Below are positions 10,693 to 14,416 of a DNA stretch of 64,000 nucleotides, piece by piece (positions within the stretch are counted from its first letter, which is position 1; each line of letters starts with the position of its first letter). The translations under genes and the position numbers were made by a program. Source of the stretch: Isoetes taiwanensis (Eukaryota > Streptophyta > Lycopodiopsida > Isoetales > Isoetaceae); contig JAJEKV010000054.1 of the NCBI GenBank assembly GCA_021234155.1, positions 496,001 to 560,000 on the forward strand, given 5' to 3'. Under the pieces are notes generated by a model. It was not told the origin of the DNA and searched no databases. It saw only the letters and a program-made list of their open reading frames with translations.

Positions 10693-12069
10693 ATGATGGA
10701 GGAACACAAGCAAGTATACAAGCGGATGCCTCGCTATTCTAGATGCTCCATAGCTTCCCTAATGGCCGAACGTTTGCCACACCCAAACCCATCGGCCGAA
10801 GAGGAGGCAAAGGCCGAAGGGTTATTAGAACATTTTGCTAAGCGTTTTTTTGAAGGGGCTAAGATACCATACCCGCTCTTCTGCTACAATGAGCGCTTTG
10901 TCTTTAAACTTAACGCCAACCAGGAGTCTTACACCGTAATTGAGGAGGAAGATGGCGTCCAGAATTATACACGGTTCTGTCCATCGGAAGGGGATGAGCA
11001 GGCTAAAGCGGAGGCCATACAGATGCAGGCCCATAAGATCCTACAAATGGCACAAGAGGCTGACCGGCAATGGCTTGCAACCGATGACCCTGCTGCGCAA
11101 GCTCTAGGGTACCGCTATCTTGGTAATGGGATGTGTCTCTTTGGTGGTGGATCATTTACCATTCCATCTTTTTCTTATGAGGAGGAAAATAATCGTATTA
11201 TTTGGGAAGCCGGGTCACCCCCATATTTCACCGATCAGTTCCAGCGAGCTATTGAGCAGGATATGCAGGCAAATCCCCCACGGTATTTTCTGGAGCTTAA
11301 ACGAAGAACAGATGTTCGGATAGCCCTGGAAAAGCGAGCAGATGAGAAGGCAACACTCCAGGCACAATCACAGAGGGCAACTCACTTGGCAGAGGAGGCT
11401 GCCAAACTTTATGAAGATACCCTCCGTGCACGGCAAGTGGAACAGGAGCAAGCTCGGAAAAGAATGCAAGATGACGCGGAGCGGATAGCAAGAGAAGCAA
11501 CCGAGACAGTTAAAGAACGGCTTAGGAAAGAAGAAGAAGAACGCAACAGGTTGGATAAACACAACTTGCCACCTCCGAGTAATCCTCCGATTCGCAGAAA
11601 GCGGAAGAGTACGGCCCGCAAGTCGGGTGCTCAGTACAGGGATCAACTCAAGACTCGGGGTGGGGTCACTAAAGCTGCGGGGGATAATCAGCGGGATGAA
11701 ACGATACGAAGGGCGCGGCATCCAAAAACCGCGGGGAAAACTATTCCCGGAGCTCCCCCGCAACCTAAGAGGAGGCACCGTTACAAACCAGGCACGGTGG
11801 CACTGAGAGAGATACGGAAGTATCAGAAGTCCACTGGCTTTCTGCTACGCAAACTTCCGTTCCAACGCCTGGTCCGGGAAATAGCCCAAGAATATAAGAC
11901 GGATCTGCGGTTCCAGGTACACGCAGTCCTGGCACTTTAGGAGGCGGCCGAAGCTTATTTGGTGGCCCTCTTTGGGGACGCCAATTTGTGTGCTATTCAT
12001 GCTAAATGGGTCACCATAATGGTGAAAGATCTTCAGTTAGCACGCCGGATTCGCGGGGAACGGCCTTGA
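10693..12069 (+). pseudogene. Coiled-coil protein fused to histone H3 (H3.3-like), one amber stop
   Basis: 458 codons from the ATG at 10693 to TGA at 12067, with one in-frame TAG at 11938. Residues 1-205 match nothing I recognise. About 210-297 is a charged coiled coil. A basic H3-like tail starts near 301 with KSTARKS, which keeps the equivalents of K4 and K9. From about 362 to the end is an H3 histone fold very close to canonical H3: YKPGTVALREIRKYQKST, then RKLPFQRLVREIAQ and TDLRFQ, then, after the TAG that replaces the expected Gln, EAAEAYLV, NLCAIHAK and ARRIRGER. Y41, H87 and L90 (H3 numbering) are the plant H3.3 set. R116 is W and P121 is V. It lies between primer site and gag on the sense strand. 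A centromeric H3 is unlikely, given the canonical alpha-N helix. Confidence 0.93.
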
Positions 12070-12388
12070 GGATGTAAAATTGAAAGATGTATATACTTTT
12101 TTGTGTATCAATTTAAAACTAAGTTTTTGACTCTTCTTTCCAATTGTAACAATCAAATTTCTTTTCTTGTTATTATTATTTAAGATTCCGAGAAGAATAA
12201 AATAATGATAATAATAATAAAAGAAAAACATTTAAAAAAAATAAAAAATAAAAATAATATATAATTAGCTGGCGCATCGAACTCCGTGCCTCAATGTCTA
12301 AAAGTCAGATTCACTTTAAGTTTTTCATTTCCTTCAGTCTCCCTTTTCGTTTTGCTCCTCCTTCTTGCTCTCTTCTTTGTCATGGATT
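12070..12388 (+). other. Spacer between H3 and H4-like ORFs
   Basis: AT-rich, about 320 bp. It ends in a long pyrimidine tract (about 12315-12380) that includes CTTCAG, a plausible splice acceptor just before the next ORF. No coding content is seen. Confidence 0.5.
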
Positions 12389-13239
12389 ATGCCGGACGTC
12401 TTGCCTGGTATATGGGAGGCGAGGTGGGATCCTCAGGTTCCCTATCCTCTTCTAGACCCCATGCTGCAGTGCAGGGTCGATCTTGTCGATAATATGCGGG
12501 CACACCCTCATTATAATGAGTTCCTCGAGTTCTATAACGAGGAAATCTTACCGCAGGCGGAACTCTTGGGCGAGCCGCCTCAGCCCTATCTCCATAGGAA
12601 CATCTTATGGCAAATGTTTGGGGATGATCACCATGGCGATGCCATACTCAGAGGCATTGTTCGACGTGCCAAGCATGGCCCCATTCTTGACTTTGGGTCT
12701 AATCAAGTTTATTTTGAAGCTCAGTTTGCTCTTGCCCTACTCATGGATAGATATATTGAAAGTAGTGACACCGCCTTGGAGCAAACCAAGGCTCCACTAC
12801 CTCAGGATCCGGAGGAGGATGAACAGATAAGCTATGCGGATTTCACCAGGTGGAAGGAGCTAGTTACAGAGAAGCCTTTATCTCGTAGTAAGGGCCAAGC
12901 GCTTATAGGATTGGGTGCACTTCCCACTATAAAGGTTGGGGATCAGGATTACTTGTTGCTTAGTGACATTCAATGGGCATACCAACATGTTGCCAATAAG
13001 GCAGGCCAAAGACGGCTCATCTTCTGTATGAGTTAGCCGAGTATTGCCAGGGGCAAGATGACTTCATGGATTACTCTAGACCTGTCTACCCGCCAGAGAT
13101 ACACCGACTGCTCAATTATCACCCTCTTGATATTGAGCCCGTCAACACTCTGTTGTCTCTACGTCAACTAATGATCCAAGATGTTCCTTCATCGGTTCCT
13201 GAATCGGCTTTCCACGATACGGCACCACATGTCCCTTAA
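12389..13239 (+). pseudogene. Histone H4-like ORF with long extensions
   Basis: The frame opens with ATG at 12389 (an ATG at 12382 is in another frame). Around residues 70-130 it follows H4 in order. HRNIL aligns with H4 HRKVL. AILRGIVRRAKHGPI aligns with AIRRLARRGGVKRI with one gap. VYFEAQFALALLMDRYI aligns without gaps to the second helix, IYEETRGVLKVFLENVI. An acidic insert of about 50 residues follows, then LSDIQWAYQHV where H4 has AMDVVYALKRQ. A one-base frameshift near 13010 leads into a further segment that ends at TAA 13237-13239, overlapping the next ORF's ATG by 11 bases. Identity is low and the assignment rests on spacing and helix pattern plus neighbourhood. An unrelated protein cannot be excluded. 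Confidence 0.6.
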
Positions 13240-13810
13240 CATCAATGATGTTACCGTCAAGATGGAAGACGACCCAACCACGGAGGATCTTTGTGATGAA
13301 GCCCAGTACGTTCAGGAGGAGAAAGATTTTGTTAAGGAAGAGGAACTGCCGCAGAACTTCGAATCTGAGTTGGCTTCCTTAACCCATCCGAGTGTCGAGG
13401 GGTTAAAATGTCATATCACCCGGTTCTTCTTGTCGGCTTTTACGAGCAGACAAGTGCTCTTCTTTGCCAAAGCAATTGCACTCGAAGCTGAGGCAGCTGT
13501 ATAGGCACTCCGAGCACTTTCTACAACAGCTGGCCATAAGAAGCTACCAATTAATCTCGAGCAGGTCATCCTCGTCAATCGTGATCTTGCCATTGCTGTA
13601 TTTGACCACGATATTGGCTCTTGGATGAACTTGAGTTTACTGGTTGCAGCGCCGTTAGCTACAAATGTTCCTCCAGAGATAGCTTCATCAGCTGCTTCAT
13701 CAATTAATCCTAATGTGTTACTTCTTCAGCACCGACCCGACCTCTTAGTTCTAGACTTTATCAGATACTTGTACTCAGTTCTATGTAATTTTGATTGGCA
13801 TTTTCTTTAA
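13229..13810 (+). pseudogene. Histone H2A-like ORF with acidic N-terminus
   Basis: The ATG at 13229 starts an acidic leader of about 60 residues. It is followed by a fold-like region. TRFF and a Val nine residues later parallel the H2A alpha-1 HRLL...RV. A 29-residue stretch ending in KK matches the length of the H2A alpha-2 (AAVLEYLAAEILELAG...NKK), with shared A, L, E, AA, A and KK positions. NRDLAIAVFDHD parallels PRHLQLAIRNDE. A C-terminal SINPNVLLL parallels the docking segment LPNIQAVLL. One in-frame TAG lies at 13502. The frame stays open afterwards to TAA at 13808-13810. Sequence identity is weak, so the call rests on colinearity and on sitting between the H4-like and H2B-like ORFs. 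Confidence 0.55.
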
Positions 13811-13963
13811 TGAGCCATCACATAATATATATACTATTTTCTTATGTTCCATCGTATTGTTGAATACAATTACATTGTCTTTCTCCTACAATGCTTGTCT
13901 CTCTTCCTTAAAGTTGAAGCTCCGTTATTGTATATTCATCCTTGCCGTCTTACAGACGATGAA
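13811..13963 (+). other. Pyrimidine-rich spacer with putative splice acceptor
   Basis: The spacer ends TTGCCGTCTTACAG (13942-13955), a good plant 3' splice-site shape, nine bases before the H2B-like ATG. A spliced subgenomic message is possible. No donor was identified with confidence. Confidence 0.4.
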
Positions 13964-14416
13964 ATGGAAGAGAATGAGGACGGAATACCCGAGGAACTGC
14001 GGGGGGAAGATCAGATACCTCTAGAACAGGACTATGGTCAGGAGTATGCCGACTGTCAGACAGGGGATCACGCTTATGAGGCAGAGGAACTTGTGGAAGA
14101 AGAAGAGCCCTACGATCCAATTAGGGGGTTAGAAGTTGTCAATATCCTCTGTGAGCGCGCCTTCGAGCATCTAGAACAAACTCTCCGTCGTACCTGGAAC
14201 TACTGGGATATGACAAAGCGCGAGGCTTTTGCCGACGCAAATGATCATCTATAGCAAATCTTCTACGCACTGAGAGATCTCTTCCATTTGCTCATCATTA
14301 GCCCTACGTTAGATTACCAGTATGTTATCATCCAGGCATGGGCTCGTTACAAATTAGTCAGGGCAGTACGGGAGAGTATTCGATACTCTATCCTGTCCCC
14401 TTTCGCGGAGCCCTAG
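13964..14416 (+). pseudogene. Histone H2B-like ORF with acidic N-terminus
   Basis: The ATG at 13964 opens a frame of about 150 codons with an in-frame TAG at 14252 followed by CAA, ending at TAG 14414-14416 (TGA two codons later). The first about 50 residues are acidic. The rest is helical. After the stop, QIFYALRDLFHLL, PTL and IIQAWAR parallel H2B DIFEKLAQEASRL, PTI and EIQTAVR in order and near-equal spacing. LVRAVRES parallels the H2B C-terminal helix (LAKHAVSEG) with a one-residue offset. Alone this would be marginal. As the fourth ORF after H3, H4-like and H2A-like ORFs it gains weight. Confidence 0.5.

What the first reader, a model, noticed from the sequence alone, without database searches (positions are those of the whole stretch)
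10693..14416. An LTR retrotransposon carrying a set of four core-histone-like genes
Seen: four consecutive sense ORFs lie between primer site and gag. The first ends in an unmistakable H3; the next three show colinear, weaker matches to H4, H2A and H2B. Gag-pol with a chromodomain follows. Known: chromoviruses normally encode only gag-pol, and histone sets are known in some giant viruses; I know of no plant LTR element with a histone quartet, but I could not search. Inference: the element may assemble its own nucleosomes or nucleosome-like particles on its cDNA or integrated copy, escape or exploit silencing marks read by its chromodomain, or pack nucleic acid with histones.
Basis: partly seen in the sequence, partly recalled or inferred. 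Interest (0 to 1): 0.96.

Follow-up and report, generated by a model that had tools for sequence, protein, structure and literature searches.

The report
Plant retrotransposon family encoding histone H3

Summary
The H3 is real; the quartet is not supported. The window holds a chromodomain Ty3/gypsy element (LTRs, 5-bp target-site duplication, primer site, gag-pol) with nested insertions. Its first ORF is a ~310-aa domain of unknown kind fused to histone H3 (Pfam E 1.1e-17; stop-free ORF1s of two other copies reach 1.7e-41 and 3.5e-44). The genome (1.658 Gb; by size and sequence count probably the quillwort Isoetes taiwanensis) holds at least 97 ORF1 places. Two deeply diverged lineages keep ORF1-H3 followed by ORF2 (ORF4 and gag also seen in both). 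Between them the N-terminal domain is 30% identical but the H3 core 84%; among lineage-A copies median dN/dS is 0.037 for the H3 core against 0.12-0.16 for the N-terminal part, ORF2, ORF4 and gag. So this is an old, selected gene, not a chance capture. Neither it nor ORF4 matches histones by Pfam, PDB or profile comparison (H4: borderline only). Most likely the fusion joins host H4 in tetramers or nucleosomes to tether element functions to chromatin or alter it; that step is inferred. My literature searches showed no LTR element with histone H3.

The parts
5319..5323 (.). 5' target-site duplication TGTAA
   Evidence: matches 44497-44501
5324..10075 (+). 5' LTR (TGTGACGTTCC...GGAACGTCACA), interrupted by an insertion of about 3.2 kb near 6404-9615
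   Evidence: self-BLAST; three pieces 95.3-98.1% identical to the 3' LTR, 35 mismatches in 1550 aligned columns
10077..10088 (+). primer binding site-like TGGTAACAGAGC, one base after the 5' LTR
   Evidence: sequence; resemblance to the initiator-Met primer site is recalled
10696..12069 (+). ORF1: ~310-aa N-terminal domain of unknown family plus C-terminal histone H3; one in-frame stop in this copy
   Evidence: at least 97 related places in the genome
11584..11775 (+). basic stretch in the place of the H3 tail, longer than a canonical tail and poorly conserved between lineages
   Evidence: alignment, identity 0.33 between lineages, per-copy tails
11776..12066 (+). histone H3 core (residues 39-135 by H3 numbering), gapless against canonical H3
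   Evidence: 82 of 97 identical to Arabidopsis-type H3.3 as typed; median dN/dS 0.037 among lineage-A copies
12382..13810 (+).
13964..14416 (+). ORF4, ~150 aa, acidic N-terminal half, conserved C-terminal half; no detectable histone relationship
   Evidence: median dN/dS 0.119
14633..16222 (+). gag (Ty3 capsid, zinc knuckle) running into protease
   Evidence: PF19259 9.8e-16, PF03732 6.3e-14
16144..18933 (+). pol: protease, reverse transcriptase, RNase H, integrase (pieces separated by stops)
   Evidence: RVT_1 2.1e-38; tblastn to RNase H and integrase ORFs of neighbouring gypsy elements
18934..19407 (+). integrase C-terminal SH3-like part and chromodomain, end of pol
   Evidence: PF24626 6.3e-21, PF00385 9.9e-09
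31212..31224 (+). polypurine tract-like TTCAAAGGGAGAA before the 3' LTR
   Evidence: sequence
31225..44496 (+). 3' LTR, interrupted by a nested LTR element at about 31907-43613
44497..44501 (.). 3' target-site duplication TGTAA

Best explanation
This is one decayed copy of an old, abundant chromodomain Ty3/gypsy family that has made a captured histone H3 the C-terminal part of its first protein. Shown: the H3 core is under stronger purifying selection than the four other stretches measured (N-terminal part, ORF2, ORF4, gag; pol was not measured), it keeps the H3-H3 dimer surface and many DNA-contact residues, and the tail and N-terminal domain diverge. Inferred: the fusion pairs with host H4 and enters (H3-H4)2 tetramers or nucleosomes (the element supplies no other histone that I could detect), so that the N-terminal domain, and perhaps ORF2 and ORF4, are tethered to chromatin, to steer integration or to change the chromatin of element copies.
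For: H3 identity. Inside LTRs and TSD. At least 97 ORF1 places (97 scored of 8465 first-look candidates) and 150 H3 matches listed genome-wide (scored of 8705), 36 of them in open frames of 400 aa or more (hand count). Median dN/dS, lineage A: H3 core 0.037, N-terminal part 0.162 (171 pairs each; 43 and 19 saturated and left out); lineage B 0.074 and 0.128 (3 pairs each); ORF2 0.137 in A and 0.226 in B, ORF4 0.119, gag 0.116. A-B identity 0.84 core, 0.33 tail, 0.30 N-terminal. In 22 copies the ten residues I listed from memory as the H3-H3 bundle are unchanged wherever read except one D106N; of 19 listed DNA-contact sites 8 are invariant, including R49, R63 and R83. Substitutions shared by both lineages (V89I, T107A, I124L) and moderate support for one clade (0.89 and 84) point to one capture.
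Against: No expression, protein or chromatin data exist here. The ~310-aa N-terminal extension is unlike canonical H3 and may hinder incorporation. Some listed DNA-contact sites do vary (40, 41, 42, 43, 64, 86), and sites often linked to chaperone choice (86-90, 102, 105, 107; recalled) have changed, so normal deposition may be lost. dS is near saturation, copies were chosen partly for open frames, and pairs are not independent, so absolute dN/dS is rough.
Confidence: 0.5

Rival explanations
1. Full histone quartet: ORF1 to ORF4 encode H3, H4, H2A and H2B, and the element builds its own nucleosome-like particles.
For: By eye, colinear resemblances. ORF2 against H4: hhalign score 20.8 against a maximum of 19.1 in 30 column-shuffled nulls, P 0.023; H4 scores on single sequences P 0.0045-0.107 in 4 of the 6 ORF2 sequences that cover the stretch, no hit in the other 2; window ORF2 P 0.010.
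Against: ORF2 and ORF3 are one protein in intact copies. No Pfam or PDB histone hit for ORF2 or ORF4 by sequence or profile. H2A and H2B comparisons give nothing. hhalign probability for H4 is 2.1%, one of eight comparisons. In one search control ORFs reached P 0.006 and 0.013. The ORF2 model shows helix, hairpin, helix rather than a histone fold at the H4-like stretch, and none of the 50 rows shown by either fold search names a histone, though the model is weak (mean pLDDT 38.7). No model of ORF4 was made.
Confidence: 0.04
2. Decoy: the H3-like protein competes for H3 chaperones, H4 or histone-modifying enzymes, weakening silencing of the element without being stably built into chromatin.
For: Core conserved while the K9 context (ARKS) is present in only 7 of 22 copies (and in the window copy) and the tail diverges.
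Against: The conserved H3-H3 bundle and invariant DNA-contact residues are more than a simple chaperone decoy needs.
Confidence: 0.15
3. Packaging: the H3 fusion, with its basic tail, condenses or protects element RNA or cDNA in the virus-like particle or pre-integration complex.
For: The 66 residues before the core hold 18-22 K/R against 2-6 D/E in the 22 copies; ORF1 lies in the same element upstream of gag.
Against: A generic nucleic-acid binder would not need such constraint on the dimer surface; H4 would have to be recruited.
Confidence: 0.15
4. Passive cargo: an H3 cDNA captured by chance and carried along, as H3 was by a hAT transposon in fungi.
For: H3 capture by a transposon with inactivated copies is on record (PMC6710886, abstract seen).
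Against: dN/dS 0.037, retention across two lineages at saturated synonymous divergence, open frames in many copies.
Confidence: 0.03

Closest known systems
Plant chromoviruses (chromodomain Ty3/gypsy LTR retrotransposons)
   Same: LTRs, 5-bp TSD, gag, RT before integrase, C-terminal chromodomain.
   Different: Three extra ORFs between primer site and gag, the first ending in histone H3. The clade (Tcn1, Galadriel, Tekay, CRM, Reina) was not determined.
LTR elements with captured accessory domains, e.g. Phalaenopsis gypsy elements with an AlkB-like m6A demethylase (PMC9289625; abstract, passages and section 12 read)
   Same: A host-type nuclear function kept over many rounds of replication.
   Different: That screen of 121 angiosperm genomes reports 15 extra domains; the section I read names PMD, G-patch, AIR1, DUF1409, YgdH, L26, B3, ArgoL2 and 2-ODD, and no histone.
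Fungal hAT transposon that amplified histone H3 (PMC6710886; abstract and outline seen)
   Same: Transposon-borne H3 in many copies.
   Different: DNA transposon, copies inactivated; here the H3 is a fused, selected part of a retroelement protein.
Viral histones of giant viruses and bracoviruses (PMC9145170; listing, abstract start and term search seen)
   Same: Parasite-encoded eukaryotic-type histone.
   Different: DNA viruses, doublets or full sets among them; a term search of that review found 'retrotransposon' and 'retrovirus' absent. Here H3 alone, fused to an unrelated domain.

Membership tests
Chromodomain Ty3/gypsy LTR retrotransposon | LTR pair with target-site duplication | tested here: met
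   TSD TGTAA, TG...CA ends, 35 mismatches in 1550 aligned LTR columns
Chromodomain Ty3/gypsy LTR retrotransposon | gag, RT, RNase H, integrase in gypsy order with chromodomain | tested here: met
   (gag, RT, integrase end, chromodomain); RNase H and integrase by tblastn to neighbouring gypsy ORFs
Chromovirus clade (Tcn1, Galadriel, Tekay, CRM, Reina) | RT phylogeny and chromodomain group | not tested
   no reference elements were compared
Histone H3 | H3 by profile, gapless core | tested here: met
Histone H3 | strong purifying selection on the core | tested here: met
Canonical H3 (H3.1 or H3.3) function | free N-terminal tail with K4, K9, K27 contexts | tested here: not met
   tail fused to ~310 aa and divergent; ARKS in 7 of 22 copies
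Core histone quartet (H3, H4, H2A, H2B) | ORF2-4 are H4, H2A, H2B | tested here: not met
   H4 borderline only
Centromeric H3 (CENH3) | lengthened loop 1 relative to H3 (recalled) | tested here: not met
   the H3 core aligns to canonical H3 without insertion
Viral histone doublets | two histone folds in one chain | tested here: not met
   one histone stretch in ORF1; no histone match in ORF2

The most novel reading that the evidence does not exclude
The family encodes its own H3 variant that assembles with host H4, H2A and H2B into nucleosomes on its own copies. Because 15 of 22 copies examined no longer carry the ARKS (K9) context in the tail, such nucleosomes could not bear the usual heterochromatin mark, giving the element self-made, silencing-resistant or self-recognising chromatin.
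Probability: 0.25. Interest if true: 0.95.

Novelty: new variant of a known kind. Interest (0 to 1): 0.84.

Why it matters
Host silencing of retrotransposons is written in part on histone H3. A retrotransposon lineage that carries H3 itself, and keeps its core under tighter selection than its own gag, makes the question of whether mobile elements can shape their own nucleosomes directly testable. It would also extend parasite-encoded eukaryotic histones from DNA viruses to a plant retroelement, present in at least 97 places here.

Tried and rejected
Histone quartet: tested by Pfam, PDB phmmer and hmmsearch, HMMER with canonical H2A/H2B/H3/H4 profiles against shuffles, hhalign, AlphaFold and Foldseek; rejected except for a borderline H4 resemblance of ORF2. 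In one search the window's ORF2 gave H4 P 0.010, but controls reached similar values: an ORF of a nested element 0.006 for H2B, this element's RNase H-integrase piece 0.013 for H2A.

Reassigned stop codon: the six in-frame stops I counted inside this element's frames are TAG, so I asked whether TAG is a sense codon here. Frames of neighbouring elements are broken by TGA and TAA too, and intact copies exist, so this was dropped.

Relatives elsewhere: residues 1-290 of ORF1 found none at E <= 0.001 among 3445 candidates; the ORF2 alignment none at E <= 1 among 8000 scored; viral contigs none (records near the window's genome may be left out there). Plant genomes other than the window's own were not available, so restriction to this host is not shown. 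The whole-ORF1 search listed 120 of 3960 hits, all with histone Pfam domains and matching over 16-50% of the query, mainly the H3 part; I looked at the sequences of seven.

ORF2 with 20 sequences: mean pLDDT 38.7; blocks from residue 41 to 120 reach 51-74 with helix, hairpin, helix, helix, hairpin, helix; helix-turn-helix and winged-helix proteins are frequent among the 50 rows shown of each fold search, none at E <= 0.001. The ORF1 N-terminal domain and ORF2 share nothing detectable.

Literature: ten answered searches (one search was an input error). On the theme itself are; no title or abstract start among their listed rows (20 of 222, 3 of 3, 15 of 68, 3 of 3, 6 of 6, 0, 10 of 22) reports an LTR element with a histone. 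Most subscription papers and bioRxiv are not held.
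Full report
Setting. The window is contig C1061:496001-560000 of a 1,658,258,908-base assembly in 1110 contigs. Size and count are close to the published Isoetes taiwanensis assembly (1658.30 Mb; 204 scaffolds plus 909 contigs; PMC8566536, passages read).

Element. Self-BLAST and the ends show one LTR element: TSD TGTAA at 5319-5323 and 44497-44501; 5' LTR 5324-10075 split by an insertion; primer site at 10077; ORF1, ORF2, ORF4, gag, pol with chromodomain to 19407; a nested LTR element at 19753-30901; a purine tract; 3' LTR 31225-44496 split by a second nested element. 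LTR pieces differ by 35 mismatches in 1550 aligned columns, so this insertion is young compared with the family (below). The H3 is therefore inside the element, not beside it.

H3. ORF1 of the window scores 1.1e-17 to PF00125 up to its stop and 5e-25 to PDB H3.3. H87 and L90, which plant H3.3 has (recalled), are present. Stop-free ORF1s of two other copies reach 1.7e-41 and 3.5e-44.

Family. A search of the own genome with ORF1 scored 97 of 8465 first-look candidates and listed 102 matches in 97 places at 55-100% identity, many without stops. PF00125 gave 150 scored of 8705 candidates, all listed ones above the cut-off; 15 have 164-165 bits over profile positions 2-122, as ordinary H3 would, and 36 of the 150 lie in open frames of at least 400 aa (counted by hand). 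An ORF2 search scored 91 of 7240. Of the listed places, 52 of 97 ORF1 places have ORF2 within 6 kb downstream on the same strand and 52 of 91 ORF2 places have ORF1 upstream; both lists are capped, so these are lower bounds. Of the other 39 ORF2 places, 6 have an H3 match just upstream, tested against 12 hand-picked rows of the 150.

Gene order. In 20 fetched copies (chosen for ORF1, mostly for open frames) ORF2 sequence is found in 19 (in L026 only 21 residues), ORF4 in 14 and gag on the sense strand in 16 (counted by hand; gag in L028 is on the other strand and was not counted). The four-ORF picture is thus partly a product of decay in this copy. A second lineage (L043-L045) has ORF1-H3 followed by ORF2, and in L044 also an ORF4 piece and the start of gag.

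Selection. Nei-Gojobori estimates on natural open frames, medians: H3 core, lineage A, dN/dS 0.037 (dN 0.044, dS 0.738; 171 pairs, 43 saturated); N-terminal part 0.162 (171 pairs, 19 saturated); lineage B 0.074 and 0.128 (3 pairs each); all 57 A-B pairs and all 22 host-copy pairs are saturated at synonymous sites. ORF2 0.137 in A (5 sequences) and 0.226 in B (3 sequences), ORF4 0.119 (6 sequences, 4 of 15 pairs saturated), gag 0.116 (6 sequences); pol was not measured. Identity between lineages is 0.84 for the core, 0.33 for the tail, 0.30 for the N-terminal part. Pairs are not independent, and choosing open frames favours better-kept copies, but the contrast between parts of the same ORF is not explained by that.

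What is kept in H3. Against the host H3 at L046, 54 of 97 core sites are identical in every copy. The ten residues I listed as H3-H3 bundle (from memory) are unchanged wherever read except one D106N. Of 19 sites listed as DNA contacts (from memory) 8 are invariant (among them R49, R63, R83); R42 and K64 are swapped between K and R, and 40, 41, 43 and 86 vary more. Majority changes from the host in both lineages: 60, 86, 87, 89, 102, 105, 107, 124, 135. Several of these lie where H3 variants differ and chaperones read them (recalled). The tail is not kept: an ARKS-like K9 context is found in 7 of 22 copies (and in the window copy) and in none of the three lineage-B copies.

Origin. V89I (18 of 19 A copies, 3 of 3 B), T107A (19 of 19, 3 of 3) and I124L (17 of 17 read, 3 of 3) are shared by both lineages and absent from the host H3. 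Rooted on yeast, the 20 copies with enough core form one clade (FastTree 0.89, ultrafast bootstrap 84; two copies with short cores left out). One capture is the simplest reading; support is moderate on 97 sites.

ORF2 and ORF4. No histone by Pfam, by PDB, and no relative of ORF2 in the protein collection (8000 candidates scored). hhalign against small typed profiles: ORF2 to H4 20.8 (P 0.023, probability 2.1%, null maximum 19.1 of 30 shuffles); the other seven comparisons lie within their nulls. HMMER on single sequences gives the same H4 stretch in 4 of 6 covering ORF2 sequences (P 0.0045 to 0.107) and nothing in 2. The AlphaFold model of ORF2 is weak, but at the H4-like stretch it draws a hairpin and a short helix, and at the H2A-like stretch a short helix followed by strands, unlike the three-helix histone fold. 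Foldseek finds nothing at E <= 0.001; helix-turn-helix and winged-helix proteins are frequent among the weak rows shown, so a wHTH-like domain in ORF2 is a lead, no more. ORF4 was not modelled.

Reading. The element supplies one recognisable histone and would rely on the host for the rest. A core held to strong constraint with a diverging tail and N-terminal domain is what one expects if the core must fit into a tetramer or nucleosome while the rest adapts. Tethering or chromatin alteration follow from this but are inferred; decoy and packaging remain open.

Known work. On-theme searches of the open-access library listed no LTR element with a histone. H3 capture by a fungal hAT transposon is known (PMC6710886, abstract). 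A 121-genome angiosperm screen for extra domains names no histone in the section read (PMC9289625). Term searches found 'histone' absent from the main texts of a paper on additional plant ORFs (PMC7264820), a review of gene capture (PMC13317346), a review of giant transposons (PMC6431247) and the Isoetes genome paper (PMC8566536).

Noticed in passing
6413-9610: Insertion of about 3.2 kb in the 5' LTR with matching inverted ends (GTTTAAAATGAAACGCACT and its reverse complement), holding degenerate tandem repeats near 7550-8200: looks like a DNA transposon.
   Followed up: partly
19753-30901: A second gypsy element on the minus strand nested in the H3 element, LTRs 98.7% identical, flanked by AGCAG on both sides by eye.
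   Followed up: partly
20174-23629: Three long minus-strand ORFs (440, 335, 374 aa) between pol and the 3' LTR of that nested element, no Pfam match at E 0.01, 77-91% identical to a second copy within 46638-52448: another gypsy family with unexplained extra ORFs.
   Followed up: no
31907-43613: Another nested element splitting the 3' LTR of the H3 element, related to the one at 19753-30901; flanked by GCTAT by eye.
   Followed up: no
L046: One of 15 ordinary-looking H3 loci in the listed part of the genome search carries E at position 77, where the references typed have D; 20 of 22 element H3s also have E77.
   Followed up: no
10642-14680: Pyrimidine-rich stretches ending in CAG or TAG lie shortly upstream of ORF1, ORF2, ORF4 and gag, and could be splice acceptors for separate expression of each ORF; seen by eye only.
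   Followed up: no
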